NCBI RefSeq assembly: GCF_004210375.1
Contig: NC_134833.1
Coordinates: 145,382,127 to 145,446,126, forward strand
Length of the DNA stretch: 64,000 nucleotides
Source of the DNA: Tachypleus tridentatus
Taxonomy: Eukaryota > Arthropoda > Merostomata > Xiphosura > Limulidae
Direction: 5' to 3'
Shown: one piece after another, positions 1,991 through 59,233 of the stretch
Numbering within the stretch: the first letter of the stretch is position 1
Layout of the letters: each line of letters begins with the position of its first letter
Translations under genes and position numbers: made by a program
Notes under the pieces: model-generated
Told to the model about the DNA's origin: nothing
The model's input: the letters and a program-made list of their open reading frames with translations, nothing else
Databases searched by the model: none

Positions 1991-2043
1991 GCATGCGCAA
2001 TTTCAGAGCTGTCAGAATTTATCAAAGACGAGTTGTATAAATA
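1991..2043 (+). promoter_or_regulatory. B1 core promoter: NRF1-like motif and TATA box
   Basis: GCATGCGCA at 1991-1999 resembles an NRF-1 (nuclear respiratory factor/erect wing) half site. TATAAATA lies at 2036-2043, 70 bp before the chosen ATG. The same pair, at nearly the same spacing, precedes all four B genes. A start site about 30 bp below the TATA box would give a 5' leader of roughly 40-45 nt. No expression data were available, and the block is also conserved simply because it is duplicated. Confidence 0.6.
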
Positions 2044-2112
2044 CCAGCAGATGAGAAGAAGGAGAGGTTTATGGTTTTAGTTATTCTATACGTATTTAAG
2101 AATTTCACAGAG

Positions 2113-2841
2113 ATGGAGTATAAGATTGTATTAGTAATTTTGTTTTTATATTTTAATCTCGCGACGTTGCATTTTTATCCTACAGACCCATCTATATCCA
2201 ATGTATTCGTTACGGATGATAATCAAATAACGAAGGATGTAGAACGTCGGCGTCGGGAGGCTAGCGATGGCGCAACAACGGTCCCTCCAACGGAAGGTGT
2301 AGAACGTCGTCGTCGGGAGGCTGGCGAAGGCGCTTCCACGGTCTTTCCAACGGAAGGTGTAGAACGTCGGCGTCGGGAGGCTGGCGAAGGCGCAACCACG
2401 ATCCTTCCAACGGAAGGTGTAGAACGTCGGCGTCGGGAGGCTGGCGAAGGCGCAACCACGATCCTTCCAACGGAAGGTGTAGAACGTCGGCGTCGGGAGG
2501 CTGGCGAAGGCGCAACCACGATCCTTCCAACGGAAGGTGTAGAACGTCGGCGTCGGGAGGCTGGCGAAGGCGCAACCACGATCCTTCCAACGGAAGGTGT
2601 AGAACGTCGGCGTCGGGAGGCTGGCGAAGGCGCAACCACGATCCTTCCAACGGAAGGTGTAGAACGTCGGCGTCGGGAGGCTGGCGAAGGCGCAACCACG
2701 ATCCTTCCAACGGAAGGTGTAGAACGTCGTCGTCGGGATGCTGGCGAAGGCGCTTCCACGGTCTTTCCAACGGAAGGTGTAGAACGTCGTCGTCGGGATG
2801 CTGGCGAAGGCGCTTCCACGGTCTCTCCAACAAAGGTGTAG
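2113..2841 (+). CDS. B1: putative secreted tandem-repeat peptide precursor
   Basis: Unrecognised 242-residue protein. Residues 1-20 (MEYKIVLVILFLYFNLATL) form a signal-peptide-like hydrophobic start. A linker of about 25 residues follows (YPTDPSISNVFVTDDNQITK), then ten 20-residue units of the form VERRRREAGEGATTILPTEG. Each unit holds an RRRR block, a candidate furin/prohormone-convertase site, and a 16-residue peptide with four Glu (EAGEGATTILPTEGVE). That layout suggests a multi-copy secreted peptide precursor; this is inference, with no known homologue recalled. I chose ATG 2113 over ATG 2071 because it starts the conserved MEYK/MECK leader and has purine at -3 and G at +4. A 1-nt loss near 2832 shifts the frame to a TAG, so seven more DNA repeat units lie beyond the stop. 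It could instead be a noncoding minisatellite locus. Confidence 0.5.
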   Translation: MEYKIVLVILFLYFNLATLHFYPTDPSISNVFVTDDNQITKDVERRRREASDGATTVPPTEGVERRRREAGEGASTVFPTEGVERRRREAGEGATTILPTEGVERRRREAGEGATTILPTEGVERRRREAGEGATTILPTEGVERRRREAGEGATTILPTEGVERRRREAGEGATTILPTEGVERRRREAGEGATTILPTEGVERRRRDAGEGASTVFPTEGVERRRRDAGEGASTVSPTKV

Positions 2842-3254
2842 AACGTCGGCGTCGGGAGGCTGGCGAAGGCGCTTCCACGGTCTCTTCAACGGAAGGTGTA
2901 GGACGTCGGCGTCGGGAGGCTGGCGAAGGCGCTTCCACGGTCTCTCCAACGGAAGGTGTAGAACGTCGGCGTCGGGAGGCTGGCGAAGGCGCTTCCACGG
3001 TCTCTCCAACGGAAGGTGTAGAACGTCGGCGTCGGGAGGCTGGCGAAGGCGCTTCCACGGTCTCCAACGGAAGGTGTAGAACGTCGGCGTCGGGAGGCTG
3101 GCGAAGGCGCTTCCACGGTCTCTCCAACGGAAGGTGTAGAACGTCGGCGTCGGGAGGCTGGCGAAGGCGCTTCCACGGTCTCACCAACGGAAGGTGTAGA
3201 ACGTCGGCGTCGGGAGGCTGGCGAAGGCGCTTCCACGGTCTCTCCAACGGAAGG
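2239..3254 (+). repeat. 60-bp tandem array in B1, about 17 units
   Basis: About 17 units of 60 bp, roughly 65% GC in AT-rich surroundings. Sub-variants are grouped: units near 2360-2700 carry an ATCCTTCC version, flanking units a GTCTTTCC or GTCTCTCC version. That points to local amplification. One unit near 2832 has lost a base and one near 3063 has lost three. Because 60 is a multiple of three, the frame is stable between indels. TAG in GTGTAGAACG is read in frame as V-E and is a stop in another frame. Confidence 0.95.
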
Positions 3255-3445
3255 TCATTAACTAGAACTACGAACTCCTTTTAGTGAAATATTGTGGTGT
3301 CGTTAGCTCGTATGTAACTTTTGTATCATGTGTATAAATTAAATTATACAGTTCTTTATCGCTGTTTACGAACTGGTATTTCGGAAGTTTTCCTTGTTTA
3401 ATGAAAGATCTTTCAACAGCACTATGTAAAAGCTTCTTCCATTGT

Positions 3446-4977: not shown

Positions 4978-5112
4978 CACATGGATACAGTCATCTCTGG
5001 ATCCTCACTGCCTATGAATACAGTCATCTCTGGATCCTCACTGCCTATGAATACAGTCATCTCTGGATCCTCACTGCCTATGAATACAGTCATCTCTGGA
5101 TCTTCAGTACAC
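4978..5112 (+). repeat. 33-bp minisatellite beside hAT G1, four units
   Basis: Four near-identical 33-bp units (TATGAATACAGTCATCTCTG then GATCCTCACTGCC) start in the right target-site duplication of G1. The unit is single-copy at the related empty sites near 42,230 and 62,820 and beside G2. Confidence 0.9.
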
Positions 5113-5939: not shown

Positions 5940-6668
5940 CTTTTCTATCAAGATAGTTCTGCAAACTTCAGAAGAGATGATAATCAGATGGGGCAACTTC
6001 TGGAGAAAAAGGAGAATGATGGAATTTTTAACCAGTCTATCTCTTCTATTTTTGCAGATGTAATCCTTGTTGTATTGGGCCGTACATTATCCTGGTGTAA
6101 CACAACACCTTTACGATTGACCAAAGAAGGCTTCTTATCTTTCAGTGCAACATTGAAGCGCACGAACTGTTTTGACAATAGAAGTCTGAAGTAATCCTTA
6201 GATTGAGTGGCACCAACTCAAAGTAGATCACACCAACGATATCCCACCAAATGCTTTACAAGACTTTCCTAGGGTCTAACTCCATTTTGGGCTGTGCTTT
6301 AGCGAGTTTACCTGCACTGATCCATTATCTGCGGCACTTAAAAACTGTTATAAAACATCCATTTTTCATCTCCAGTCACTAACATGTCCAAAATCTTCAT
6401 TAAGTGCACCAACAGAAAATCAGGAAATAAACTCAACAGGACGACCTGAACGTGGTGCATCACTTAAGATGTAGACACATCCATCTTCATAAGAGTTTAT
6501 TTTATTAATGATCTGAAAAGTGGAGATGGTTTAGTTTCTTCCATTTGTCTGGACAGGTGTATACATGTCTTAGTATATACTGTAGTCATTACAAACTTCT
6601 AAAAAGACAGAAATGGTGATTCCCTTCTGTATTAAATTTTGGGGCATTACTATTGGGATAACCTGATA
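5940..6668 (-). mobile_element. mariner copy A2, 3' truncated
   Basis: Inverted copy of the same mariner, matching A3. On the minus strand it reads LHQDNVRPNTTRITSAKIEE (the second catalytic Asp is kept), and the first Asp motif GDEK is also present. The outer terminus (GGGATAACCTGATA) is at about 6655-6668. The transposase C-terminus is missing because the element stops at the inversion junction at 5940. Confidence 0.85.
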
Positions 6669-7229
6669 TAAATGAATTATTTTCCTTCTGAAGTGTTCAG
6701 TATTCGGTGAAGTGGCATGTCCTTTTATATCTCTGTCTGCTTTGATTCCATTTTTCAAGTTTATTTGCTAGTTCTACCTAGCTTTTGTGTTTAATGATTA
6801 ATGATTAATTGCATTATTTTGTATGTTAGGTATTTTAAACATAATTTACGGGACATAAAATGCAAGCTCACATTATTTAGAGCTGTAATTTTTATTCTAG
6901 AAAAATATAATACTGGACTTAAGTGTTGTAAGTCAAAAAATTTACTCACTTAATCAAGGGACAATTACACATTGGACAAATTCGTGTGATATATAAAATT
7001 GAATGGCACAAATTGTGTTATTCTAGTTTAGAACAAGCGTAAGACTCTACCAACATACATGTATTTGAAACTATAAATATAGTCATAATGAAAATATCTT
7101 TAATTCACTAAAGCAGTGAGGAAACCCAGGGGTTCGTTGAGTCAGTCTCAGATGTTCGGCGAAGGTCAAAACACGCACACTGTGTGTGTGTCCATTCCGT
7201 TCATTCAACTCGTATGATTCGTGACGCCA
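6669..7229. other. Flank between mariner A2 and SINE
   Basis: Noncoding. It matches, inverted, 33,356-33,924 and 56,060-56,636, and contains no recognisable gene. Confidence 0.55.
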
Positions 7230-7240
7230 TGCCCACTTGG

Positions 7241-7515
7241 TTTGTTTGTTTTCGAATTTCGCACAAAGCTACTCCAGGGCTATCTGTGCTAGCCGTCCCT
7301 AATTTAGCAGTGTATCACTAGAGGGAAGGCAACTAGTCTTCACCACCCACCGCCAACTCTTGGGCTACTCTTTTACCAACGAATAGTGGGATTGATCGTC
7401 ACATTATAACGCCCCCACGGCTGGGAGGGCGAGCATGTTTGGCGCGACCGAGATGCGAACCATCGACCCTCAGATTACGAGTCGCACGCCTTAACACGCT
7501 TGGCCATGCTGGGCC
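7241..7515 (-). mobile_element. tRNA-derived SINE, full length, with target duplication
   Basis: Minus-strand SINE with a tRNA-like head at 7440-7515, a central body and a CAAA-rich tail. It is flanked by the 11-bp target duplication TGCCCACTTGG (7230-7240 and 7516-7526). The orthologous insertion with the same duplication is at 30,399-33,344 and 55,768-56,048. Confidence 0.9.
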
Positions 7516-7599
7516 TGCCCACTTGGCCATCATTGGCTGCGGCTGATCACGTCACATCACTTGGCCTTAATATCTGTGCTGCAGAAAACTTCGTGCGCT

Positions 7600-8784
7600 T
7601 AGTACTCGACTTGTGACTGTAATAATCGTGCGTCAGTTTTTAATTTTTCCAAACCTTTCAATCTTGTGCGAAATACTGCCCTGAAGCACCGCATCTTCAA
7701 AGAGCTATGTAATGAAATGGGCTCTGAATTTGAGGTACTTCTGTGCCACTCTAACGATCGGTGGTTATCCCAGGGAAAGGTACTGAATCGTGTTTTTGCC
7801 ATGCGTGTGGAATTAGCCCTGCTTTTGCGAGAGCACCAACATTGTCATGTAGATTGCTTCGAAAATCTGAGTACACTCTAATTTGGCGTACATGACCGAT
7901 ATCTTCAATGCTTTCAGTCATCTCAATCAACAGATGCGGGGCGGTGGAGTCAACATCATCGAAGCGGAAGAACACCTGAAGGCTTTTAAAAAAAGCTACG
8001 AACAGAGAATGATAACTTTGCAAACTCTTCCCTGCTGGACGACTGTGTAAGTGAGATCGAAGATATGTCTGAAATCGGAGACTTTTCTGTACTCGGGGAA
8101 CTGAAGCAAACAATTGCCATGCACTTAGATGAGCTCGCAAAGTCTCTCGACGGATACTTCGTCACCAGAGAGTCATATCTAGCATGTGTAAGACAGCCGT
8201 TTACGTTTAGTGTTGCGACAGCAGATGTCAATGGTGAAAACCTCGACGAAATCATTGAACTTCAGCAGAGCCAGGTTCAACAACAACTTTTCAGAATAAC
8301 AACGCTCTCAACGTTTACGTGTCACCAAATCGTAGCGTACCCTCTTATTGCTAATAACGCCCTTGAGATAATCATACCGTTTGTTTTAACATATCTTTGC
8401 GAGCAATCCTTTTCGAGGATGGTAGACATAAAAACGAAGAAAAGGAACATACTTTGTTGCGAAAATGATATGAGTGTGGTACTTGCCAAGGTGAAGCCGC
8501 GCATTTTTGAACTTGTCTCTGAAATGCAACAGCAAAAGTCACATTGATTTGCATTAAATATTCATTGAGTTATGTTTTTGTTTGTGTGTGAAATTCATGT
8601 TTTGTTGGTTTTGTTCTTTGAACACAGTGATATTATGTGCAACTGATGCATGGCTCATTTTGTGCTCTAGTAAAATATCTACTTATATTTTGAATTTGAA
8701 AAAATCATATTTTATTTTTCCAATTACGAAGGGTTCAGTGAAACTTCCGGGGTTCAGTACCTCTAACAGGGTTAAGAACCACTG
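7600..8784 (+). pseudogene. hAT transposase fragment C1 (ZBED5/SCAND3-like)
   Basis: 5'-truncated hAT transposase. The first segment (7666-7881) reads ALKHRIFKELCNEMGSEFEV followed by NDRWLSQGKVLNRVF. After frameshifts it reads FNAFSHLNQQMRGGGVN. The last segment, an open 160 residues at 8065-8547, ends with the hAT C-terminal dimerisation signature LTYLCEQSFSRMVDIKTKKR and NDMSVVLAKVKPRIFELV. The right terminal repeat, GGTTAAGAACCACTG, ends at 8784. Two minus-strand relatives lie at 29,135 and 54,504. The N-terminal half with the BED finger and the first catalytic residues is absent, so this copy cannot move itself. Confidence 0.85.
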
Positions 8785-8954
8785 CACTAAAGTAAGTAGA
8801 CATTTATCTCTGAGGTTTAGGAAACGTTCGAATTAGGAAATATTATAGACCCTCAATTGTACCCTCCTAGTACTTAACCATTGACAGTCAACAATACTGA
8901 ATTTACGTGTCTCAGAAATAGTTTAGAAGATGTAATTAAATTAGGAACAATGAA

Positions 8955-9226
8955 ATGGTTTATTGTTTTAACAGTTTGTGTGTGGATATGGAAAATGTTA
9001 AATGCACAGTTTGTGAAGAAAATCTCATGTCAAATAATGAGCATATTTCATGTAAGTGTTTGTGTGAAGGCTGTTATATCATTGTCATCTTAAAACGTGC
9101 AGGAAGAAACAACTGAATAGAGATACAAACCAAATCAACTAGAAAAGTTGTGGAAGAAATCATGAGAGTATGGATACTGACAGCATTTAATAATCATTTT
9201 ATGGAATTCTTTATGAAAACTTTATA
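8955..9226 (+). pseudogene. Small Cys-rich ORF, interrupted copy
   Basis: Reads MVYCFNSLCVDMENVKCTVC followed by EENLMSNNEHISC, then TGA at 9114-9116, after which the same frame continues IEIQTKSTRKVVEEIMRVW to the end. It is the interrupted counterpart of the open copy at 28,691-28,963. CxxC and later Cys residues hint at a zinc-binding fold; the family is not recognised. Confidence 0.5.
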
Positions 9227-10094
9227 AAAATATAAATAAATTCACGTCTTACATATCGTAAATGTATATTTATCATACCAATACTTCATTATTACAGCTA
9301 CTTTAGAAGCTATCGATACCCAAGTTCACTGATTTAGTTGAATCTGATCTGGAACACTCTTATTCGCAAATATAACCTTGATACACGTGTTTTTCAAAGC
9401 TCAACGTCATAAAAACATGAAGATATGCCATTAACGTTCCTAAAAAAAAAAAAGAGAGTAACTTCTGTGTTTGTTTATTTTAAATTAAATGTTTTTGGAT
9501 CCAAAACTAATATTCCAGTTTTAAACATCAATTAGTTTGTAAACATTCTTCGACATACAGTGTAGCTTCAGTTGTTTCCTGGTACTTTAGTTTTGTTGAA
9601 CCGCAGAATAAAAAATGAAAACTTTCACATTTACAGCGTGTAACTATGTTATCAAATTTTACGATCCTTAAAAGGATATGCAGTCTAGATTTCGAAAAAC
9701 TTTATTTTATGAATCTGTCGATTTATTCCTTTCCAGGATGTTAAAATTGATAATTACGTTTATCTGCAATTACAAAGGAAGCTTCATGTACATATCAAAC
9801 ATTTACTCTTTTAAATGTCAGTTTATGAGTGTCTATTTGGTTATTTTTTATCATTATTTTGTATTGGTTAAAGATGCAGTTTGGTTTGATTCAGTAATGT
9901 TTAGAACAGTGATGGAATTCAAATATTTTAACAACCGGTTATATGTCGCGTTACCCACCACAATTTTGTGTGATTAAAAATAACAACAAAAATATCTTAC
10001 TCAAATAATTTATTCAGCATGCTTCAAATATTTCCAAATTACCACTTGATTACCATTAAAATCTTTATTCCTTCAACGCTTGAACCCGTTGTTA
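9227..10094. other. Noncoding flank, duplicated block
   Basis: AT-rich. Matches (inverted) 27,800-28,690 and (inverted) 53,175-54,070. Nothing gene-like was seen. Confidence 0.55.
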
Positions 10095-10764
10095 TTAGCT
10101 GTGTGTAATTTCATAGCCAAATTTGAACTGGAAAAGTGGGATTCTGTGAAACCAGTGGGAGGCCAATAAATCAATTGTCATTAGGTTTGCCACATTTTCA
10201 ACTGTAAGGCGGCTTCTTTCATCTGAATATATAATATTCATTATTGAAAACCCTTTTTCTGCTTCTGCGGAACTAAGAATATAACTATTGATAATATTTT
10301 TAGCCTTTTGTACAGTTCTTGAAATCTCATGATTATGGTGATTTCGAAGGACATTTTTCACATAGTCACAGAAATCATTAATTCTAATTTCGTGATGAAA
10401 GAACTTACTGAATTCATACAATTTGTCATCAGCGTCTTCCCAACGCAACAACTTTATCAGTACTCCAAAAATTTGGTTCAAGTATGTTTACCAGTTCATG
10501 AATTTTATTGTCATTTTCTTGTGCATTATTTGTTAATTTTAAGCGATCACAATTCATAATATTTCTCATCGCCTTTAGAGTTTGATGATACATAGATGGT
10601 ATCACCAGAGATACCGAGTGTATTTTCAACTTGTGTGTGTGTTGTTGCATAGACAGCCACACCAGGTTTTTCGTGTGTACAAACCCATGATTATAGGTTT
10701 CTAGTGCCTTATACTTATTTTTGTTCCAATGTGAATCATGTAGATTCAGATAATAAATAATCAT
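10095..10764 (-). pseudogene. hAT transposase C-terminal fragment E1
   Basis: Minus-strand remnant of a second hAT family. Two overlapping frames (10,429-10,764 and 10,095-10,481) join by a frameshift near 10,435. The C-terminal hAT dimerisation motif is clear: SSAEAEKGFSIMNIIYSDER followed by SRLTVENVANLMTI. A further frameshift garbles the final residues, where the sister copy at 52,800 reads GLPVVSQNPTFPVQIWL. All three copies share the first frameshift, so the element died before the duplications. Relatives I recall are KIAA1586-like hAT transposases. No termini were identified. Confidence 0.78.
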
Positions 10765-11639
10765 GTTGCTGGGGTTACAATTCCAATGTTGACCTGCAAG
10801 CTACCCAACTCTTTAATGAAATAAAATAGTGGTAGATGTTGATGTATAGGAGACAGTAAACTACATTTCCAATGACTGATAGTATGATGACAGATTCGAC
10901 ACCAACCAGCATTCATGACAGTCAGATGAATTTTAAAGCTATAAACTTAAGCTTCATGCTAAGAACTTATCTATTTGTTCTATTAAAAACGGATAATTAC
11001 TCAAAAAGAGAGTTATTTGTGAGTGGAGACAAAGAGAAGAAATTCCTCCAGGTTTCATAAAACTTCCATTGGTTCATTAAAGACGTAAAGTTAATAAAGA
11101 CTCAATGGAGCCATTTTAGAAAAAAAATTTGCACCAAATATTTATAATTTTATGATACAGGTTTCGTGCAGTTTTTTATAAAAAAATTCATTGGGAGTTA
11201 CAACCATCTGTATAAAATGCAATAGTGTTATATTCTACAATATTTTCCTACTTCGTTTATAAAATTATTTCTAGAATTGTCGAGATACGTTTCAAAAAAC
11301 TCTATAATATATATAGGTAATGAAAGTATCAAAAAGTTTTGAACAATATTAATCTTGACTTTATCACTTCGCGCGAAATTATTTTTTCAAACTTTTTAAA
11401 TCAAAACGTGTAAATTCTTTAGATCCTGAGTTTTGAAGAGTGAAACTCATTGTTTGGTATTATTTGTGTTGAATATCTCAACCCTGATTTTTACTTTTAA
11501 ATTGTATTTTATAATGTGGGTAATGACTGGAATTTATAAGTTAAACCTGGTAAAACTGATGCCGCAGAACCTTTATGTAGCAATTTATTTTATTGGACAT
11601 TTGGTGAAATTATTATTACCCTGTTTTCTATTTGGGAGT
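10765..11639. other. Noncoding flank, duplicated block
   Basis: Matches (inverted) 26,285-27,145 and 51,665-52,515. Only short, nonconserved ORFs; nothing recognised. Confidence 0.5.
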
Positions 11640-11858
11640 GGCCGGCATAGCCAGGAAGATAAGGCACTCGACTCGCCCTTTCATCCGAGGGGGCGTTATA
11701 ATGTGAAGGTCAGAACCACTGTTCGTTGGTAAAAGAGTAGCCCAAGAGTTGGTGGTGATGACTATTTGCCTTCCCTCTACTCTTACACTGCCAAATTAGA
11801 GATGGCTAACGCAGATAACCCTCGAGTAGCTTTGCGCGAAATTCCAAACAAACTAAAA
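11640..11858 (+). mobile_element. SINE, same family, degraded head
   Basis: Carries the GTTATAATGTGAAGGTCA, GGTAAAAGAGTAGCCCAAG and GCCTTCCCTCTACTCTTACA blocks and the 3' GCTTTGCGCGAAATTCCA end. Inverted partners are at 26,050-26,282 and 51,440-51,660. Confidence 0.8.
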
Positions 11859-12124
11859 TCTTCTGGGGTGATTGGGGATAGGGCATTTGTGAAAGTAACA
11901 TTTTTAGTTATAGTATGATTGCATCTTATTAAATAATCAAATGTTGACTTTTTGTTATATGTTTGCATCCTTGATTGATCACATTTGGACTGTATTAAGT
12001 GTTGTGTTACCTTCATATATCTTTTTCAATCAAAGTTACTATTTTGTAACGTTTTACTTTATATATCTTTTTTCTTGCAATAAAAAATTCACGTTTTCTA
12101 CTGGAAATGTTTATTTATTACTGA

Positions 12125-16465: not shown

Positions 16466-18480
16466 CAGGGGCGAAGATTTGTTACACCCGATGGGGTGAT
16501 GATTTTTGCAATCATTTATATGGTCTGTTCAATTTGCAAATTGGTAATCTCTAATTACGTGAACCTGAAAGCTGTAAACATGCAGTCACAGAGTAATCTT
16601 GTTGCCACGATACTTCAAGGTTTCCATGTAGGTTTGTATAAGGGAGTTGTTGTGAACAGTTTTCAAAATGTTAATAGAATGGCAGATAGGTGGCACAACC
16701 AGCGTGTTGGACAGAGTGAGCGGATGTATTTAACTGGACCATTGTGGCTGTCTGACGATACAATATTTTCAAAGATTGTCTTGTATTTCCCTGACCTCTG
16801 AAGCAAGACACCAAGTTCATGTTCCCACTGGATAGAATCTCGAACACATTCACAAGCTTCAACTGCATGTTGCATTATTAAATTAGCCTTGTGTGCTCTG
16901 CAGTGAAAAAACAAAGCTGACGGTTGTTTCTCTTTTATTTTTGCCTGGCATCCACTGTATGCACCAATCATGTTAGCAGCTCCATCATATGTTTGTGCTC
17001 TTAATCCTGACAGTGGTAAATTGAGTCTACTTTGTACATCAAGTAGAGTCGAGGATATTGTTTCACCAGTTGTATTTGAAACACTGTATAACCTAGAAAT
17101 ATCTCATGTACGTCAAGGTTCTCATCTACGTATCGTAGACATATTGCTTCCTGTTCGGCACCAGTAATACCTTGAGTGCCATCAACCATTAATGCAAAGA
17201 TTTCACTCAAGTGATATGAATGTGGTTTTCTTTGACAAGTAGGCCGTCAACTCAGGATCTTCCTCTTCCAGGAGCTTCATTAACTGCAGAAAGTTCCCCT
17301 CCGTATCAGTATGTCCACGTAATGCTAAACCTTGATGTAGTAAGAAACGTAAAATTCTGAATATTTTGGCTAGACTTTTGCATTCTTCCTGCTGCTTTAA
17401 TTTTCCATCATGTAGCTGGACAGTCACTGTAGTTACATCAAGTGAATCTTCTGGAGATATAGCGAATCTGTCCTGAGAAGAGGACTAGTGTTCGTTGGAT
17501 TTCTGTTTTGCCTTTTTCCAGTTGCAAAAATCGGTGGATATGAAAGTATACTCGACTGGCCTCTCCAATTTCCCTGGAAAAAGGCCTCTATTTTCCACCT
17601 TGGCACAATGAAAGCATATGACTTTGAGTCTGATTGTCGAAGTGCAGCCATGGGAACTCAAATCACTTACCCTGGAAGTTGATATATTGAGATTTTGCTT
17701 TCTGTCGTGGTGTTAGTTGTGCGTCTAGATAATATAGCTTTCCACGCTGTATCTGTTGTATGTCAGATTTTACATTTCGACACAAACTTTTTCACAACTA
17801 TCTGGTGGTTCATGATGTGCAATAGTTGCTCAAGAATTTTCAGACTCGTTCTCTGATAAACATGGTATTTCCTCTGTATGGAAAGTTTCTATTCCTTTGC
17901 TTGAGGTTGTTGGATTATCTACATTTGCATTGTCATTTGTTGTACTACTAACTGGCTTGAAGAACTGTCTAATATCGGAAAGTTTCAAACGCTTGCTTGT
18001 CATAATTGGAATCTGTTTCACAGATGACTCAACAGGCTAAAATACAGTCTTTATCGAAAAACTCTAACGAACAACGAACGAAGATATAATAGAATGGAAT
18101 TAGGACTGAACTGTACAATGTATTTAAGTCGAACGCGCTTACCTCACAGTGACTACCGAGCCGACAGACCACCTGGGCATCGCTGGGACAATAATGTGTG
18201 CCAGTTGCAACACCAGTAATTGCAAGTTTCTAGAAAAATTCTTAAACAATCACAAATATATTATATTCCTGTTAAAGCTCATCAAAAGGCAAATACGTTG
18301 TGATATAATGTCTATAAGCATGTCTATTAAATAAAAACACCTAAACAAAAACTAGCAATACAATTCGAGTAGAGGCTTCAGGCTGTTAAAATCACTCCTT
18401 TTGTGTTCAAATTATGCAAAAAAAATACAATATTTTTACCATTTATGATAAGAGAATATATTGTCCTTTTACCATAAATC
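16466..18480 (-). mobile_element. hAT element G2, inverted, 5' end lost into gene B2
   Basis: Minus-strand copy of hAT family G. Its right terminus is at 16,466 (CAGGGGCGAAGAT). Readable parts on the minus strand are LSDIRQFFKPVSSTTNDNAN (near 17,960), KTTFISLE and MSEIFALMVDGTQGITGAEQ (near 17,200), and MIGAYSGCQAKIKEKQPSAL (near 16,960). All are typical of ZMYM1-like hAT transposases with DUF4371. It carries the stop after FQGK seen in G3. At 18,480 its 5' noncoding region is joined directly to the repeat array of B2. The dimerisation domain is deleted. Confidence 0.82.
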
Positions 18481-18791
18481 ACCCGACGTTCTACACCTTC
18501 CCTTCGAGAGGCCGTGGTAGCGCCTTCGCCAGCATCCCGACGTTCTACACCTTCCCTTCGAGAGGCCGTGGTAGCGCCTTCGCCAGCATCCCGACGTTCT
18601 ACACCTTCCCTTCGAGAGGCCGTGGTAGCGCCTTCGCCAGCATCCCGACGCCGACGTTCTACATCCCTCGTCATTTGACTATCATCCGTAACGAATACAT
18701 TGGATATAAATAGGTCTGTATGATAAAAATGCAATGACTTGAAGTTAAAATATAAAAACAAAATTACTATTACAATCTTATACTCCATCAT
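18378..18791 (-). CDS. B2: truncated repeat-peptide gene fused to hAT DNA
   Basis: 137-residue ORF starting MMEYKIVIVILFLYFNF, with the B-family signal peptide and linker (FVTDDSQMTRDVERRRR). About three 18-residue units follow (RRDAGEGATTASRREGVE), shorter than the 20-residue units of B1 and B4 and with ASRRE in place of SPTE. After the array the frame runs without a stop into hAT G2 5' DNA, which supplies a foreign 36-residue tail ending KGVILTA. The normal B 3' end and poly(A) region are missing. ATG at 18,791 and 18,788 are both possible starts. The promoter TATA box is intact. It is probably a rearranged remnant, but the leader is conserved enough for expression to be possible. Confidence 0.42.
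   Translation of the reverse strand: MMEYKIVIVILFLYFNFKSLHFYHTDLFISNVFVTDDSQMTRDVERRRRDAGEGATTASRREGVERRDAGEGATTASRREGVERRDAGEGATTASRREGVERRVIYGKRTIYSLIINGKNIVFFLHNLNTKGVILTA
18481..18662 (-). repeat. 54-bp tandem array in B2
   Basis: About 3.3 identical units of 54 bp. Relative to the 60-bp unit it lacks six bases (one CGT repeat and part of the linker), so the frame is preserved. Confidence 0.9.
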
Positions 18792-18857
18792 TACCAAATT
18801 CTAAAATACGTATAAAATAACTAAAACCACAAACCTCTCCTTTTTCTCATCTGCTGG

Positions 18858-18910
18858 TATTTATACAACTCGTGTTTGATGAATTCTGAGAGCTCTGAAA
18901 TTGCGCATGC
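18858..18910 (-). promoter_or_regulatory. B2 core promoter: TATA box and NRF1-like motif
   Basis: TATAAATA on the minus strand (18,858-18,865) and GCATGCGCA (18,902-18,910), same arrangement as B1, B3 and B4. Confidence 0.55.
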
Positions 18911-21690: not shown

Positions 21691-22124
21691 TAGATCTGCA
21701 ATTTAGATGTAATTGCTTACCTAACACAACGCTTATATTTTAACGTTACGCTACATGTACATTTATATTTTATTGACCATATACTAGTAAAGTGTTTAAT
21801 GTATGATTCTAAACAAATATTCATATTTATCACGAAACAAGTACCACACAGACACTACTAACTATACTTACAGTTTCTGAGATAATGTGTTGATGATGTA
21901 TGTATAATTAATTTGTTAAAATAACTCAAAACTTTATAACAAAAGTTATATTTTAATATTAGTAAACTACTCATCCTGTTTCACAATAAAATGGTATAAA
22001 ATTATTAGGTCCAATACAGTTATTAAATTGCCAGTAGTTCACACATTAACAAAAGTTTGTGTATCAAAGCTATATTTCATATACTAGCCTATACATATAA
22101 TCTTAACTGTGTGGTGGGATGGTT

Positions 22125-22290
22125 TGTTTGTTTTATTAATTTCACTCAAAACTACTCGAGGGCTATCTGTGCTAACCGTCCCTAATTTAGCAGTGTAGAA
22201 CTAGAGGGAAGGCAGCTAGTCATCACCACCCATCGCCAACTTAGGCTACTCTTTTACCAACGAATAGTGAGATTGACCGTTACTTTATAA
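22125..22290 (-). mobile_element. Truncated SINE
   Basis: Headless minus-strand SINE. The paralogue at 47,890-48,065 ends at the same base, so the truncation predates the direct duplication. Confidence 0.78.
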
Positions 22291-22999
22291 CGAACTTGTT
22301 TGTAACTACGTTAATTACTACGTCAGCTCGGTTTTTTTTTAAACCAACATCATCACAGCCAATTGGTATTATTGACACGATTTAGTTGTAAGTATTTAAT
22401 TGAAAATAGGGTCATCGTTATTTCACTAATTTGTTATTACGTCCACAATGGTGAAATAAACAAAGCTTGTCAGGTGCAGTACGTCACCTGCATAACTTTT
22501 ATAACGGTCTCGTACACGTTACTCTGACACCTATATATAGATTCAAGCCAGTCACAGTGACATCTGTAAAAGTCTCATAACGGTCTCGCATCAGCCATTG
22601 ATACCCGTACAAATAGTCACACCAGTCACAATAACACCTGTAATAGTTTCTCAACAGTCATTTTAACACCCAAATTGTCTCACGCCGGTTATACTAACAT
22701 AATATAATGAACCGTAGTTGCACTGATGCTCATAATAGTCTCACATTAGTCACCTTGATTCTAATTTAAACACTAAACAGTAGTTAGGGTTACTGTTATA
22801 GTTTTATTAATTTTGAAGTGGTTACGTTATAAATAATATTAAACACATCCTTATTGATTCCGAAATCATTTTTCACCTCTGAATTATTTTTAACATTTGT
22901 TATTTCTTTGCTGTAAATTTACCATACCAAGCAAAGTGCAACTAGAAAGTTTTAAATTTTCTACCATGAGTACATCATGTGTTATTAACAGGCTGTTTG
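22291..22999. other. Noncoding with degenerate tandem pattern
   Basis: Mirror of 12,330-12,985. GTCACACCAGTCACAA-like words recur at 33-36-bp spacing. The CRE seen in the other two copies is altered here (GTACGTCACC). Confidence 0.45.
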
Positions 23000-23260
23000 T
23001 TTTCTGAATTTCTTACAAAGCTGTCTCCTGTAGTCTGTTTATGAAGAGATAGACTAAAGGGAAGGCAACCAGTCAACAATCACTAACCGTCAGTTCTTGG
23101 ATTGCTCTTATTCCACAGCAAAAGGGATTGACCGTCACATTATATAGCGCCTTCACAGTAGAAGTGGTAAACATGTATGACGATGGGTGTGGATCCAGTG
23201 ATGTGCAAACATCGAGACAAGCACCTTAATCACTAGGTCATGTCAGGCGTCAGTAATAAA
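23000..23260 (-). mobile_element. Diverged SINE
   Basis: Mirror of 12,125-12,325 and direct paralogue of 48,740-49,000. Confidence 0.65.
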
Positions 23261-24061
23261 TAAACATTTCCAGTAGAAAACGTGGATTTTTGATTGCAAG
23301 AAAAACGTTTAGCTTAGCATTTTGTGTCTTATGATTTGTTTGATGAAAAAAGGACATAAACAGAGACTTGTTTTAATACAATAAATATTATAATCAAACC
23401 ATACAATTAAATTGATTTCTTCTAACAAAGAAAATCAAAAATATTTTATGTTTTAAGAATTTTTTATGTTTTACTGGGTGTAGAATCTGTAACAAGTAAA
23501 TACAGTAAAATTTATCTCTACAAAACAAGTTAAATCACTCAAAGTAAGAGATGTCCGATTGTTCAGATGATATTCAATTTAAACAGGGTCCATAAGACTA
23601 CCAAATTAATTTATCTCGTCAGTAGATGAGAGTTTGAAACATGATCAAGCATGAAACATATGAATAACATTAAATGTTGAACATTTTTTGATGGCTGAGT
23701 AAAAGTCAGTTGCCAACTTGAAGGAATTAATATGCATAAGAATAACTGTTACAGAAGATTGAGATTAAAAACCAGTTTTCTTATAAATACAGTGGATGAT
23801 AAAACCAGTCAAACTAATGATCAAAACTGGGTTAAAAATTTCTATGTCAACTGACGTAAGCAATTTACTAAATTAGCATGTTAGATAGGGTTATGCATGT
23901 TTTATTTTTCGCTAAGTTGTAAGCGTGTCATGGATGGTTGGTAATATTCTAAAATACCTCTGACAAATAACTCAAATCTATTTATTTATTTGTCAAGTTG
24001 TTTAATTATGTCTCAAATATGATTTTCAGAAGTGGTATCATAATCAAATCCTTAAAGAATA
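23261..24061. other. Noncoding, absent from the left arm
   Basis: From about 23,305 this belongs to the roughly 2.5 kb missing from the left arm. Paralogous to 49,000-49,800. No gene seen. Confidence 0.5.
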
Positions 24062-24235
24062 ATGGGGGTGTTATAATGTACGGTAAATCCCACTTTTCGT
24101 TGGTAAAAGAGTAGTTCAAGTGTTGGCGGTGGGTGGTGATGACTAGCTGCCTTCCCTCTAGTGATACACTGCTAAATTAGGGACGGCTAGTACAGATAGC
24201 CCTCGAGTAGCTTTGTGCGAAATTCAAAAAAACAA
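24062..24235 (+). mobile_element. Headless SINE
   Basis: Starts at GGGGGTGTTATAATGT and ends with a CAAAA-rich tail at 24,235. Paralogue at 49,802-49,985. Confidence 0.82.
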
Positions 24236-25009
24236 AAAACAAAGAAACATTTATTTGTCAAGTTGTTTAATTATATCAATACTCAAATCCGTAAAGAATT
24301 TTCTAAACCAAATCCGGCAATTTCTATGTGATAGTACTGATATCATGACCAGAGCAACTTTCACATGGAATATTGTAAATATTGCACCAGTTTATAATGC
24401 TTTAAAGGGTAATCATCACCAGTTCAGTAGATGTTACAATGTTCCTCAATCCAGTCCATAGCAACTTTCATGTGAAATTCTTTAATACTCTTGAAATGAT
24501 AAATACAAGATTTATCACATGAACTGGTAACGTTTTTAGAGCTAAATTTGATTTTATCATCCACTATGTTCCTTATTACTTTTTAGTTGTTTCCAGATCT
24601 GATAATATTTTATACTTTATGTTTTAAATTTCACTCAGTTTCATATTTCTCTTCTTTAATATCAAATATCATTACATATAAAAATAGTTTTCTTATATAG
24701 AACATTGCTTGAGACTATACTTAAGTTTGAAGTTTTGGACGGTACTGTTTCTGATAAGTCAGTTGTTTGGAATTAATAGATCTTCGTCTCTTTGTGTCAA
24801 GAAAGTTAATTAATTATAATTAAGTTCTGTTGAGAAGCTCCTTTTGTTTCAAATGTGGCTATTATACTGATGTCATTTATCTTACCAGATGTGATGACTG
24901 ATACAGAGAATTTACAGATCTTAAACAAATGTCCAACCTCACTTAAACCAACCCAGTTTTACTGTCGTTTACCATAAACAGATTTTCCTTCCATTGCATG
25001 TCGCTCATT
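24236..25009. other. Noncoding
   Basis: Paralogous to 49,986-50,640. Only short ORFs without recognisable domains. Confidence 0.45.
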
Positions 25010-35716: not shown

Positions 35717-35769
35717 GCATGCGCAATTTCAGAGCTCTTAGAATTTATCAAAAACGAGTTGTATAAATA
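35717..35769 (+). promoter_or_regulatory. B3 core promoter: NRF1-like motif and TATA box
   Basis: GCATGCGCA at 35,717-35,725 and TATAAATA at 35,762-35,769, 71 bp before the ATG. Confidence 0.58.
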
Positions 35770-35839
35770 CCAGCAGATGAGAGAAAGGAGAGGTTTATGG
35801 TTTTAGTTATTCTATTATATTGTATTTTAGAATTTCGTA

Positions 35840-38800
35840 ATGATGGAGTGTAAGATTGCTTTAGTAATTTTGTTTTTATATTTTAACCTCGCGTCATTAC
35901 ATTTTTACCCTAGAGACTCATCTATATCCAATGTATTCGTTACGGACGATAATCAAATGACGAAGTATACAGAACGCGGGCGTCGGGAGGCTGGCGAAGG
36001 CGCTACCACGGTCTCTCCACCGGACGGCGTCGGGAGGCTGGCGAAGGCGCTACCACGGTCTCTCCACCGGACGGCGTCGGGAGGCTGGCGAAGGCGCTAC
36101 CACGGTCTCTCCACCGGACGGCGTCGGGAGGCTGGCGAAGGCGCTACCACGGTCTCTCCACCGGACGGCGTCGGGAGGCTGGCGAAGGCGCTACCACGGT
36201 CTCTCCACCGGACGGCGTCGGGAGGCTGGCGAAGGCGCTACCACGGTCTCTCCACCGGACGGCGTCGGGAGGCTGGCGAAGGCGCTACCACGGTCTCTCC
36301 ACCGGACGGCGTCGGGAGGCTGGCGAAGGCGCTACCACGGTCTCTCCACCGGACGGCGTCGGAGGCTGGCGAAGGCGCTACCACGGTCTCTCCACCGGAC
36401 GGCGTCGGGAGGCTGGCGAAGGCGCTACCACGGTCTCTCCACCGGACGGCGTCGGGAGGCTGGCGAAGGCGCTACCACGGTCTCTCCACCGGACGGCGTC
36501 GGGAGGCTGGCGAAGGCGCTACCACGGTCTCTCCACCGGACGGCGTCGGGAGGCTGGCGAAGGCGCTACCACGGTCTCTCCACCGGACGGCGTCGGGAGG
36601 CTGGCGAAGGCGCTACCACGGTCTCTCCACCGGACGGCGTCGGGAGGCTGGCGAAGGCGCTACCACGGTCTCTCCACCGGACGGCGTCGGGAGGCTGGCG
36701 AAGGCGCTACCACGGTCTCTCCACCGGACGGCGTCGGGAGGCTGGCGAAGGCGCTACCACGGTCTCTCCACCGGACGGCGTCGGGAGGCTGGCGAAGGCG
36801 CTACCACGGTCTCTCCACCGGACGGCGTCGGGAGGCTGGCGAAGGCGCTACCACGGTCTCTCCACCGGACGGCGTCGGGAGGCTGGCGAAGGCGCTACCA
36901 CGGTCTCTCCACCGGACGGCGTCGGGAGGCTGGCGAAGGCGCTACCACGGTCTCTCCACCGGACGGCGTCGGGAGGCTGGCGAAGGCGCTACCACGGTCT
37001 CTCCACCGGACGGCGTCGGGAGGCTGGCGAAGGCGCTACCACGGTCTCTCCACCGGACGGCGTCGGGAGGCTGGCGAAGGCGCTACCACGGTCTCTCCAC
37101 CGGACGGCGTCGGGAGGCTGGCGAAGGCGCTACCACGGTCTCTCCACCGGACGGCGTCGGGAGGCTGGCGAAGGCGCTACCACGGTCTCTCCACCGGACG
37201 GCGTCGGGAGGCTGGCGAAGGCGCTACCACGGTCTCTCCACCGGACGGCGTCGGGAGGCTGGCGAAGGCGCTACCACGGTCTCTCCACCGGACGGCGTCG
37301 GGAGGCTGGCGAAGGCGCTACCACGGTCTCTCCACCGGACGGCGTCGGGAGGCTGGCGAAGGCGCTACCACGGTCTCTCCACCGGACGGCGTCGGGAGGC
37401 TGGCGAAGGCGCTACCACGGTCTCTCCACCGGACGGCGTCGGGAGGCTGGCGAAGGCGCTACCACGGTCTCTCCACCGGACGGCGTCGGGAGGCTGGCGA
37501 AGGCGCTACCACGGTCTCTCCACCGGACGGCGTCGGGAGGCTGGCGAAGGCGCTACCACGGTCTCTCCACCGGACGGCGTCGGGAGGCTGGCGAAGGCGC
37601 TACCACGGTCTCTCCACCGGACGGCGTCGGGAGGCTGGCGAAGGCGCTACCACGGTCTCTCCACCGGACGGCGTCGGGAGGCTGGCGAAGGCGCTACCAC
37701 GGTCTCTCCACCGGACGGCGTCGGGAGGCTGGCGAAGGCGCTACCACGGTCTCTCCACCGGACGGCGTCGGGAGGCTGGCGAAGGCGCTACCACGGTCTC
37801 TCCACCGGACGGCGTCGGGAGGCTGGCGAAGGCGCTACCACGGTCTCTCCACCGGACGGCGTCGGGAGGCTGGCGAAGGCGCTACCACGGTCTCTCCACC
37901 GGACGGCGTCGGGAGGCTGGCGAAGGCGCTACCACGGTCTCTCCACCGGACGGCGTCGGGAGGCTGGCGAAGGCGCTACCACGGTCTCTCCACCGGACGG
38001 CGTCGGGAGGCTGGCGAAGGCGCTACCACGGTCTCTCCACCGGACGGCGTCGGGAGGCTGGCGAAGGCGCTACCACGGTCTCTCCACCGGACGGCGTCGG
38101 GAGGCTGGCGAAGGCGCTACCACGGTCTCTCCACCGGACGGCGTCGGGAGGCTGGCGAAGGCGCTACCACGGTCTCTCCACCGGACGGCGTCGGGAGGCC
38201 ACCGGACGGCGTCGGGAGGCTGGCGAAGGCGCTACCACGGTCTCTCCACCGGACGGCGTCGGGAGGCTGGCGAAGGCGCTACCACGGTCTCTCCACCGGA
38301 CGGCGTCGGGAGGCTGGCGAAGGCGCTACCACGGTCTCTCCACCGGACGGCGTCGGGAGGCTGGCGAAGGCGCTACCACGGTCTCTCCACCGGACGGCGT
38401 CGGGAGGCTGGCGAAGGCGCTACCACGGTCTCTCCACCGGACGGCGTCGGGAGGCTGGCGAAGGCGCTACCACGGTCTCTCCACCGGACGGCGTCGGGAG
38501 GCTGGCGAAGGCGCTACCACGGTCTCTCCACCGGACGGCGTCGGGAGGCTGGCGCTACCACGGTCTCTCCACCGGACGGCGTCGGGAGGCTGGCGAAGGC
38601 GCTACCACGGTCTCTCCACCGGACGGCGTCGGGAGGCTGGCGAAGGCGCTACCACGGGTCTCTCCACCGGACGGCGTCGGGAGGCTGGCGAAGGCGCTAC
38701 CACGGTCTCTCCACCGGACGGCGTCGGGAGGCTGGCGAAGGCGCTACCACGGTCTCTCCACCGGACGGCGTCGGGAGGCTGGCGAAGGCGCTACCACGGT

Positions 38801-39202
38801 CTCTCCACCGGACGGCGTCGGGAGGCTGGCGAAGGCGCTACCACGGTCTCTCCACCGGACGGCGTCGGGAGGCTGGCGAAGGCGCTACCACGGTCTCTCC
38901 ACCGGACGGCGTCGGGAGGCTGGCGAAGGCGCTACCACGGTCTCTCCACCGGACGGCGTCGGGAGGCTGGCGAAGGCGCTACCACGGTCTCTCCACCGGA
39001 CGGCGTCGGGAGGCTGGCGAAGGCGCTACCACGGTCTCTCCACCGGACGGCGTCGGGAGGCTGGCGAAGGCGCTACCACGGTCTCTCCACCGGACGGCGT
39101 CGGGAGGCTGGCGAAGGCGCTACCACGGTCTCTCCACCGGACGGCGTCGGGAGGCTGGCGAAGGCGCTACCACGGTCTCTCCACCGGACGGTCATTAACT
39201 AG
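35840..39202 (+). CDS. B3: 1,120-residue ORF over a 47-bp array
   Basis: Starts MMECKIALVILFLYFNLASL with the same signal-like leader and linker (FYPRDSSISNVFVTDDNQMT) as B1, B2 and B4. The rest is a 47-residue period made by reading a 47-bp unit three times in successive frames: RRREAGEGATTVSPPDGV, then GRLAKALPRSLHRTAS, then GGWRRRYHGLSTG. The three segments differ in charge: one is mixed acidic/basic, the other two are basic. The array gives about 22 rounds of this cycle. The first segment matches the B1 peptide. The frame closes at TAG 39,200-39,202 just after the array. The unit has no stop in any forward frame, so length alone is weak evidence of coding. The promoter, leader and a poly(A) signal at 39,390 support a transcript. 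Function unknown. Confidence 0.45.
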   Translation: MMECKIALVILFLYFNLASLHFYPRDSSISNVFVTDDNQMTKYTERGRREAGEGATTVSPPDGVGRLAKALPRSLHRTASGGWRRRYHGLSTGRRREAGEGATTVSPPDGVGRLAKALPRSLHRTASGGWRRRYHGLSTGRRREAGEGATTVSPPDGVGRLAKALPRSLHRTASEAGEGATTVSPPDGVGRLAKALPRSLHRTASGGWRRRYHGLSTGRRREAGEGATTVSPPDGVGRLAKALPRSLHRTASGGWRRRYHGLSTGRRREAGEGATTVSPPDGVGRLAKALPRSLHRTASGGWRRRYHGLSTGRRREAGEGATTVSPPDGVGRLAKALPRSLHRTASGGWRRRYHGLSTGRRREAGEGATTVSPPDGVGRLAKALPRSLHRTASGGWRRRYHGLSTGRRREAGEGATTVSPPDGVGRLAKALPRSLHRTASGGWRRRYHGLSTGRRREAGEGATTVSPPDGVGRLAKALPRSLHRTASGGWRRRYHGLSTGRRREAGEGATTVSPPDGVGRLAKALPRSLHRTASGGWRRRYHGLSTGRRREAGEGATTVSPPDGVGRLAKALPRSLHRTASGGWRRRYHGLSTGRRREAGEGATTVSPPDGVGRLAKALPRSLHRTASGGWRRRYHGLSTGRRREAGEGATTVSPPDGVGRLAKALPRSLHRTASGGWRRRYHGLSTGRRREAGEGATTVSPPDGVGRLAKALPRSLHRTASGGWRRRYHGLSTGRRREAGEGATTVSPPDGVGRLAKALPRSLHRTASGGWRRRYHGLSTGRRREATGRRREAGEGATTVSPPDGVGRLAKALPRSLHRTASGGWRRRYHGLSTGRRREAGEGATTVSPPDGVGRLAKALPRSLHRTASGGWRRRYHGLSTGRRREAGEGATTVSPPDGVGRLALPRSLHRTASGGWRRRYHGLSTGRRREAGEGATTGLSTGRRREAGEGATTVSPPDGVGRLAKALPRSLHRTASGGWRRRYHGLSTGRRREAGEGATTVSPPDGVGRLAKALPRSLHRTASGGWRRRYHGLSTGRRREAGEGATTVSPPDGVGRLAKALPRSLHRTASGGWRRRYHGLSTGRRREAGEGATTVSPPDGVGRLAKALPRSLHRTVIN
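35985..39191 (+). repeat. 47-bp tandem array, about 68 units
   Basis: About 68 near-identical head-to-tail units of 47 bp, 34 of 47 bases G or C (72%), with about 7 CpG per unit. The unit equals the 60-bp unit of B1 and B4 minus 13 bp (AGGTGTAGAACGT), with C for A near its end. Exceptions are rare: a 46-bp unit near 36,360, a partial unit near 38,200, a 6-bp loss near 38,552 and an extra G near 38,657. Identity this high means recent amplification, and array length may be wrong in an assembly. Confidence 0.97.
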
Positions 39203-56048: not shown

Positions 56049-56059
56049 CCAAGTGGGCA

Positions 56060-58349: not shown

Positions 58350-58402
58350 GCATGCGCAATTTCAGAGCTCTCAGAATTTATCAAAGACGAGTTGTATAAA
58401 TA
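58350..58402 (+). promoter_or_regulatory. B4 core promoter: NRF1-like motif and TATA box
   Basis: GCATGCGCA at 58,350-58,358 and TATAAATA at 58,395-58,402, 70 bp before the ATG. Confidence 0.58.
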
Positions 58403-58471
58403 CCAGCAGATGAGAAGAAGGAGGGTTTTATGGTTTTAGTTATTCTATACGTATTTTAGAATTGCGAGGTG

Positions 58472-59233
58472 ATGGAGTGTAAGATTGTTTTTGTAATTTT
58501 AATTTTACATTTAAACCTCACGTTATTGCATTTTTATCCTACAGACTCATCTATATCCAATGTATTCATTACGGACCATAATCAAATGACGAAGGATATA
58601 GAACGTCGACGTCGGGAGGCTGGCGAAGGCGCAACCACGGTCTCCACGGAAGGTCTCCAACGGACCAGGTGTCTCCAACGGAAGGTTAGAACGTCGACGT
58701 CGGGAGGCTGGCGAAGGCGCAACCACGGTCTCTCCAACGGAAGGTGTAGAACGTCGGCGTCGGGAGGCTGGCGAAGGCGCAACCACGGTCTCTCCAACGG
58801 AAGGTGTAGAACGTCGGCGTCGGGAGGCTGGCGAAGGCGCAACCACGGTCTCTCCAACGGAAGGTGTAGAACGTCGGCGTCGGGAGGCTGGCGAAGGCGC
58901 GCAACCACTGTCTCTCCAACGGAAGGTGTAGAACGTCGGCGTCGGGAGGCTGGCGAAGGCGGAACCACTGTCTCTCCGACGGAAGGTGTAGAACGTCGGC
59001 GTCGGGAGGCTGGCGAAGGCGCAACCACTGTCTCTCCAACGGAAGGTGTAGAACGTCGGCGTCGGGAGGCTGGCGAAGGCGCAACCACTGTCTCTCCAAC
59101 GGAAGGTGTAGAACGTCGGCGTCGGGAGGCTGGCGAAGGCGCAACCACTGTCTCTCCGACGGAAGGTGTAGAACGTCGGCGTCGGGAGGCTGGCGAAGGC
59201 GCAACCACTGTCTCTCCGACGGAAGGATATTAA
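58472..59233 (+). CDS. B4: repeat-peptide precursor with two frame switches
   Basis: 253-residue ORF. Leader MECKIVFVILILHLNLTLL (signal-like), then the linker FITDHNQMTKDIERRRR. The first unit is EAGEGATTVSTEG. After a rearranged stretch (58,640-58,690) and a 1-nt loss, four units are read in another frame as SGGWRRRNHGLSNGRCRTSA. An extra GC at about 58,900 returns the frame, giving about six units of RRRREAGEGATTVSPTEGVE. It ends at TAA 59,231-59,233. The last units match the B1 pattern with SPT in place of LPT. The TATA box and poly(A) signal at 59,426 are intact. The two indels that cancel leave the ORF open; this may be luck, since both frames of the unit lack stops. Function unknown. 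Confidence 0.48.
   Translation: MECKIVFVILILHLNLTLLHFYPTDSSISNVFITDHNQMTKDIERRRREAGEGATTVSTEGLQRTRCLQRKVRTSTSGGWRRRNHGLSNGRCRTSASGGWRRRNHGLSNGRCRTSASGGWRRRNHGLSNGRCRTSASGGWRRRATTVSPTEGVERRRREAGEGGTTVSPTEGVERRRREAGEGATTVSPTEGVERRRREAGEGATTVSPTEGVERRRREAGEGATTVSPTEGVERRRREAGEGATTVSPTEGY
58599..59226 (+). repeat. 60-bp tandem array in B4, about 10 units
   Basis: About ten 60-bp units, the first rearranged. Two indels change the frame. Confidence 0.94.

What the first reader, a model, noticed from the sequence alone, without database searches (positions are those of the whole stretch)
2113..2841. Unrecognised family of secreted multi-copy peptide precursors (four copies)
Four loci (2113, 18,791 minus, 35,840, 58,472) share a TATA box, a signal-like leader, a linker (FVTDDNQ), and then tandem peptide units. 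In B1 and B4 a 16-residue peptide with four Glu is bracketed by RRRR, the layout of a furin or convertase-processed precursor. Alternating +4 and -4 blocks are unusual. The leader is conserved, while the repeat unit has changed length independently in each copy.
Basis: partly seen in the sequence, partly recalled or inferred. Interest (0 to 1): 0.82.

Follow-up and report, generated by a model that had tools for sequence, protein, structure and literature searches.

The report
Expanded horseshoe-crab family of secreted peptides
A horseshoe-crab genome carries close to a hundred copies of a small gene, without a match in the protein-family libraries searched, that looks built to export a short peptide; the eye-catching repeats behind it seem to be drifting freely, so the conserved front part is the likelier product.

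Summary
Four loci share an exact TATA element, a signal-like leader, a linker and a GC-rich array. They belong to a far larger family: by my count of two listings, 80 leader-bearing loci on one chromosome at 141.9-149.0 Mb, 11 at 108.8-111.5 Mb, 2 at 165.6-165.7 Mb, and one each on two other chromosomes. Coagulogen and hemocyanin genes point to a horseshoe crab. Leader codons look constrained: omega 0.43-0.57 in frame, 1.4-1.8 in shifted frames; 0 of 24 upstream control windows is as low with 33 copies, 1 of 5 with 65. I propose that the product is the N-terminal segment of about 23 residues, released at a furin-type site kept in 62 of 69 copies, with the array a tolerated minisatellite tail. 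Expression, secretion and processing are untested.

The parts
2033..2054 (+). B1 core promoter (TATAAATA at 2036-2043)
   Evidence: 4 in window, 0 expected; element conserved in C6 and C9:108-111 Mb copies
2113..2244 (+). B1 leader and linker, codons 1-44 (signal-like start, then YPTDPSISNVFVTDDNQITKDVE)
   Evidence: constraint measured on the family, not on B1 alone
2113..2841 (+). B1 open frame, 242 aa, 10 in-frame units
2232..3255 (+). B1 minisatellite array, 17.1 units of 60 bp; units of 59 and 58 bp break the frame
18378..18791 (-). B2 copy: ATGATG start, leader, three 54-bp units, diverged 3' end
18847..18868 (-). B2 core promoter
35759..35780 (+). B3 core promoter
35840..39202 (+). B3 copy: leader plus about 67 units of 47 bp read in rotating frames; 1120-aa open frame
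58392..58413 (+). B4 core promoter
58472..59233 (+). B4 copy: leader, array of mostly 60-bp units with compensating frame changes, ancestral-type stop

Best explanation
A lineage-restricted, heavily duplicated gene family encoding a small secreted peptide precursor. Each copy is a compact gene: conserved TATA promoter, ATG 77-81 bp further on, one open frame, stop; in the distant copies a poly(A) signal AATAAA lies 62-74 bases after the end of the array or last unit. The basic product is about 62 aa: a hydrophobic export signal (residues 1 to about 21), a Thr/Ser/Asp-rich segment of about 23 residues (consensus YPTDPSTSTVFVTDDNQMTGDLE), a furin-type R-X-[KR]-R site and one short acidic tail (EAGEGATTVSPTEG). 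Inferred mechanism: signal peptidase and a furin-like convertase free the N-terminal segment, which is the selected product. The DNA of the last 20 codons forms minisatellites in at least three lineages (main cluster, C9:108-111 Mb, C9:165 Mb); because it lies downstream of the functional part, length and frame changes there are tolerated. Shown: family, copy number, conserved promoter, in-frame constraint on the leader (moderate evidence), neutral array. Inferred: transcription, absence of introns, secretion, cleavage, identity of the product, whether the arrays arose separately or were lost in array-less copies; any role (immunity, reproduction) would be a guess.
For: 95 leader-bearing loci by my count of two capped listings, some partial or broken. 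65 of 74 fetched cluster copies keep ATG and an open leader; 69 of 74 are not frameshifted. Leader omega 0.50 in the main clade (55 distinct sequences, 2dlnL 17.4 against omega = 1), 0.58 and 0.51 in two overlapping sets with distant copies (2dlnL 6.9 each); with 33 copies 0.43 in frame, 1.68 and 1.81 in shifted frames, 24 upstream windows 0.65-1.22, 0 at or below 0.43. Distinct leader alleles over 74 copies: 84 missense, 36 synonymous, 1 nonsense, against 102, 28 and 6 expected from the upstream spectrum. Furin motif in 62 of 69. TATA element in distant copies; AATAAA in 7 of 7 distant copies. Hydrophobic start: best 14-residue Kyte-Doolittle mean 2.16 averaged over 69 leaders; 4.4% of 180 window ORFs reach that, and these 180 include the window's own copies. 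C6 (63 aa) and C9:108.868 (62 aa) are complete single-unit genes; in C7 the leader is intact and the tail frameshifted. Array neutrality.
Against: No transcript, peptide or second species was examined. The window's four copies have pairwise dN/dS 0.75, four-to-C6 0.97; C6 against C7 is near neutral on 8 changes. With 65 sequences the leader (0.57) is not below all five upstream control frames (0.53-0.93), although that stretch is itself the promoter. Across deep clades the leader differs more per base than most of the 1.2 kb upstream. One tree is assumed although flanks look mosaic, and the omega = 1 fits used a kappa grid whose edge was best in the main-clade set, so 2dlnL is somewhat inflated. 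The canonical AATAAA is within 140 bases of the array end in 14 of 28 cluster copies and not in B1, B3 or B4; the site mostly reads TATAAATT there (22 of 28). C6 carries about 100 bp of diverged unit-like DNA 1.86 kb downstream, so its single unit may be derived. The main-clade consensus lacks an obvious small-residue signal cleavage site (by eye). L036/L037 at C9:165 Mb lack the ATG.
Confidence: 0.5

Rival explanations
1. One reading: a multi-copy peptide precursor whose tandem 16-20-mers, cut out at RRRR, are the bioactive product.
For: Layout in B1, B4 and copies with long in-frame arrays, e.g. L015 483 aa, L008 and L017 383 aa; furin-type sites between units.
Against: Unit omega 1.42 (main, 39 sequences) and 1.0 (deep, 12 sequences), neither different from 1; unit variants neutral; 37 of 39 off-length units break the frame, and the 59-bp class is clustered in certain arrays, so not random base-calling error; B3 reads three different peptides; C6, C7 and C9:108.868 copies have no array directly behind the leader.
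Confidence: 0.12
2. The whole secreted protein works as a hypervariable, probably disordered effector whose repeat number and frame diversify it, comparable in layout to sea-urchin SpTransformer proteins.
For: Large clustered family with conserved hydrophobic leader, variable repeated tail, segmental duplications; several frames of the unit stay open.
Against: No selection detected on the repeats; shifted frames often end at the GTGTAG stop, giving truncation rather than new sequence; some copies have no array.
Confidence: 0.2
3. A decaying or passenger gene family: duplicated along with large segmental duplications, once coding, now largely non-functional or acting only as DNA or RNA.
For: Whole segments, transposon remains included, are co-duplicated; broken copies exist: L009, L010, L032, L038, L065, L088-L090, and 6 of 11 at C9:108-111 Mb have stops; dN/dS 0.75 among the window's four.
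Against: In-frame constraint and 65 of 74 open leaders; one nonsense allele against 6 expected.
Confidence: 0.15
4. The leader is cargo of a mobile element rather than a host gene.
For: hAT-type and mariner-like remains lie within the duplicated segment; copies on three chromosomes.
Against: 93 of the 95 counted loci lie on one chromosome, in clusters; the transposase pieces seen are fragmentary; no viral relative found in IMG/VR.
Confidence: 0.03

Closest known systems
SpTransformer (Sp185/333) family of the purple sea urchin
   Same: Clustered small genes, conserved hydrophobic leader, repeat-bearing variable mature part, segmental duplications, about half of cDNAs not encoding full-length proteins (passages of PMC5491942)
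   Different: No sequence comparison was made. SpTrf genes have two exons, are flanked by GA/GAT repeats and are immune genes; here one exon is apparent, the repeats look neutral and nothing is known of expression
Rlec lectins of Macrobrachium nipponense
   Same: Arthropod multigene family with variable 30/33-bp coding repeats attributed to slippage (abstract of PMC7536079)
   Different: Rlecs are C-type lectins, and 30- and 33-bp units keep frame; this family has no Pfam domain above cut-off and has frame-breaking units
Carcinolectin-5b cluster of Carcinoscorpius rotundicauda
   Same: Horseshoe-crab tandem cluster of similar size, 79 genes (section 11 of PMC7210998)
   Different: Relatives of a named lectin across about 850 kb; this family has no named relative found and its main group spans about 7 Mb
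Tatritin, Tachypleus tridentatus antimicrobial peptide
   Same: Small secreted peptide of a horseshoe crab, 68-aa preprotein, unannotated in the genome (passages of PMC8984021)
   Different: Cysteine-rich, pI 9.99, three exons; here no cysteine in the predicted mature part of the consensus and one apparent exon

Membership tests
Multi-copy neuropeptide/convertase-processed precursor | Export signal at the N terminus | tested here: inconclusive
   Hydrophobic start in 69 leaders, upper 4-8% of 180 window ORFs, which include the window's own copies; no signal-peptide predictor available
Multi-copy neuropeptide/convertase-processed precursor | Basic cleavage sites conserved | tested here: met
   R-X-[KR]-R in 62 of 69, R-X-X-R in 66 of 69, residues 41-50
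Multi-copy neuropeptide/convertase-processed precursor | Repeated peptide sequence conserved by selection and kept in frame | tested here: not met
Multi-copy neuropeptide/convertase-processed precursor | Peptide released and active | not testable with these tools
   no peptidome or assay
SpTransformer-type hypervariable secreted immune family | Clustered copies in segmental duplications with conserved leader and variable repeated tail | tested here: met
SpTransformer-type hypervariable secreted immune family | Sequence homology to SpTrf | not tested
   SpTrf sequences were not compared; Pfam, NCBIfam and PDB gave no relative
SpTransformer-type hypervariable secreted immune family | Induction by immune challenge | not testable with these tools
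   no expression data
Transposon or viral cargo | Dispersed copies with element ends | tested here: inconclusive
   copies concentrated on one chromosome; element ends not looked for; DNA search for the flank unanswered (last tried); no viral relative

The most novel reading that the evidence does not exclude
A secreted-peptide family expanded to about 95 loci, of a size comparable with the largest tandem cluster in the one horseshoe-crab paper read (79 genes), without a match in the family libraries searched, in which selection acts on a 23-residue N-terminal peptide while the same 60-bp coding tail forms minisatellites in at least three lineages, drifts freely through reading frames and perhaps contributes to the instability that multiplies the locus.
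Probability: 0.3. Interest if true: 0.68.

Novelty: new variant of a known kind. Interest (0 to 1): 0.5.

Why it matters
If expressed, this would be a large unrecognised secreted gene family in an animal whose blood is used for endotoxin testing. It would show how a coding minisatellite can persist behind a selected peptide, and it gives a concrete list of peptides to look for in horseshoe-crab peptidomes. It also warns that arresting repeat peptides read from DNA can be the neutral part of a gene.

Tried and rejected
Open reading frame of the array as evidence: rejected, antisense frames are open too. RNA gene: no Rfam family at gathering score, no tRNA. Viral origin: 99 pattern hits in IMG/VR, none confirmed. 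Known domain: three leader proteins scanned against Pfam gave one match, below its cut-off (Spore_YhcN_YlaJ, E 0.036, taken as chance); 11 leaders gave no NCBIfam match and their profile no PDB sequence up to E = 1. Other genes in the window: 17 window ORFs were scanned (7, 10); one, 44890-45210 (DUF4371), exceeds its Pfam cut-off, two have hAT-dimerisation matches below cut-off; I did not scan every ORF. Base-calling error as cause of 59-bp units: disfavoured by clustering in certain arrays (unit lengths typed). Leader as plain nucleotide conservation: tested with shifted frames and upstream windows. The deep comparison of leader against flank came out against a simple 'conserved leader' picture. 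Whole-genome duplication as source of the C6/C7 pair: unlikely, the two differ at 20 of 241 upstream bases. My earlier wording that a canonical poly(A) signal persists everywhere was wrong. Rows dropped before counts: L001 (same as B1) and L039-L050 (longer versions of L002-L013, used only to read arrays); 5 frameshifted cluster copies from the codon analyses; those plus stop-bearing and identical sequences from the ML fits; B2, B3 and spacings over 75 bp from the unit counts, which also miss units whose anchor was not found. One search hit its time limit after 3 of 6 sets; 3 sets, partly redefined, were run.

Full report
What is there. The window is G000:C9:145382127-145446126 of a 2.17-Gb genome. 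Each has the 22-base promoter element once (4 matches, 0 expected), an ATG 77-81 bp after the start of TATAAATA, a 44-codon leader and linker, and a GC-rich array. Units are 60 bp (B1, B4), 54 bp (B2) and 47 bp (B3). B1's frame ends at 2841 after 10 units because a unit has lost a base, while the DNA array continues to 3255.

What it sits in. Nearly the whole window is made of segmental duplications in both orientations, e.g. 21761-24906 against 47528-50645 at 95% and 6389-12064 against 51234-56901 inverted at 92%. The four copies are parts of these. Transposon remains are duplicated with them: one ORF scores above the Pfam cut-off for DUF4371, two below it for the hAT dimerisation domain, and a mariner-like fragment, recognised by eye, lies 0.9-1.4 kb upstream of the gene in several copies.

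Which animal. The hemocyanin middle-domain family matches at 25 places. Six of these exons were compared with PDB sequences; the best match was in each case the Limulus type II subunit or the chain called Hemocyanin AA6 (the species of these entries are recalled), with no near-identical Limulus match. The Coagulin family matches at 19 places, with four exons in one place on C11 covering nearly the whole model. That coagulogen is a horseshoe-crab clotting protein is recalled. So: a horseshoe crab, species not determined. The 1.67-Gb assembly of Carcinoscorpius rotundicauda (abstract) is smaller than this genome.

How large the family is. With an 82-aa query 205 places match; only 150 of 955 candidates were scored and the list was cut, so this is a lower bound. 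By my count of that listing 80 leader-bearing loci (match starting at query residue 21 or earlier) lie on C9 at 141.9-149.0 Mb; 74 of these were read, the window's four included. A second query lists 11 at C9:108.8-111.5 Mb (6 of them with stops), C6:13.44, C7:146.75 and two at C9:165.6-165.7 Mb. In the tree the window copies group with some others at 145.5 and 147.3 Mb, apart from the main group.

Is the leader coding? Of 74 cluster copies, 5 are frameshifted, and 65 have an ATG and no stop in codons 1-44. Pooled pairwise dN/dS is 0.37 (69 copies). Maximum-likelihood omega is 0.50 in the main clade, 0.58 and 0.51 in two overlapping sets with distant copies. Controls: with 33 copies the leader gives 0.43, its shifted frames 1.68 and 1.81, and 24 upstream windows 0.65-1.22, none as low. 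With 65 copies the leader gives 0.57, its shifted frames 1.37 and 1.36, but five control frames in the promoter stretch give 0.53-0.93, one of them lower. Distinct alleles over 74 copies show an excess of synonymous changes and 1 nonsense change against 6.1 expected. Together this is good but not overwhelming evidence of translation. Against it, the four window copies alone give 0.75 and four-to-C6 0.97, C6 against C7 is near neutral on few changes, and across deep clades the leader differs more per base (66-71% identical) than most of the 1.2 kb upstream (73-88%), the 42 bases before the ATG most of all (53%). Within the cluster, by contrast, promoter and leader vary less than the flank. I cannot explain both with one constant rate; gene conversion among cluster copies is a possibility.

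Is the array the product? Among 186 full-length 60-bp units, 44 distinct variants are 30 missense and 14 synonymous, a ratio of 2.14 against 2.15-2.26 expected without selection. Of 39 units of other length, 37 are not a multiple of three, and the 59-bp units (27 of 203 in the arrays compared) are concentrated in certain arrays. Of 34 cluster copies with downstream sequence held, 12 reach the ancestral stop in frame, about the one third expected if frame did not matter; in 2 of the 34 the array end was not found, and 2 stop at codon 3. The first unit has omega 1.42 (39 sequences; not different from 1) and 1.0 in a deep set (12 sequences). The copies on C6 and at C9:108.868 Mb are complete at 63 and 62 aa with a single unit, and on C7 the leader is intact while the tail is frameshifted. 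C6 does carry about 100 bp of diverged unit-like DNA 1.86 kb further downstream, so it may once have had more. On this evidence the repeats are not what selection maintains.

How it most likely works. The simplest gene is the C6 copy: TATA, ATG, 63 codons, TAA, AATAAA about 70 bases on. AATAAA stands at 62-74 bases in 7 of 7 distant copies; in the cluster 14 of 28 copies have one within 140 bases, and B1, B3 and B4 have none there. The predicted protein has a lysine near the N terminus, a hydrophobic run, then a Thr/Ser/Asp-rich segment that in most copies ends at E-R-X-[KR]-R. The furin-type motif is present in 62 of 69 copies and a pair of arginines in the distant ones aligned. I infer export, cleavage and release of the N-terminal segment of about 23 residues. 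Codon 26 in it carries six different residues among 69 copies, so part of it varies freely or is diversified. The array is then a by-product. Expression, splicing, secretion and cleavage are all untested.

Compared with what is known. No relative was found in Pfam, NCBIfam, PDB sequences or IMG/VR. The published list of tandem clusters in the mangrove horseshoe crab names carcinolectin-5b, 79 genes, as the largest; it was built from genes sharing a description (passages and section 11 of PMC7210998), so an unannotated short gene would be missed. I saw no report of this family in the listings of my paper searches, which cover only open-licence papers and cannot search by sequence. In layout, not in tested homology, the sea-urchin SpTransformer family is the nearest.

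Noticed in passing
window 1-64000: Nearly the whole window is segmental duplication in both orientations, most long matches 85-97% identical; neighbouring copies of the gene lie about 17-23 kb apart.
   Followed up: partly
window 44890-45213, 30872-32646, 10095-10481, 52800-53171: Remains of hAT-type transposases: DUF4371 above cut-off at the first, hAT dimerisation below cut-off within the second and third; the fourth resembles the third but gave no Pfam match up to E 0.01.
   Followed up: partly
window 57158-57409: Mariner-like transposase remnant upstream of B4, seen in the same place in distant copies; recognised by eye only.
   Followed up: no
window 4981-5106 and 46826-46957: Related 33-bp tandem arrays in both duplicates; the first is open as repeated EDPEMTVFIGS on the minus strand.
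   Followed up: no
window 60184-60439: 117-bp tandem repeat in a stretch (60001-62000) with strong negative GC skew of -0.20.
   Followed up: no
G000 C7:19.2-20.5 Mb: Several coagulogen-like matches in a row besides the fuller match on C11.
   Followed up: no
L036, L037 (C9:165.6-165.7 Mb): Two nearly identical copies lack the ATG (AAG in its place) yet keep an open leader and a long array of a slightly different unit.
   Followed up: partly
L035, 1.86 kb downstream of the C6 leader: About 100 bp of diverged unit-like DNA away from the gene: a remnant of an array or of a second copy.
   Followed up: partly
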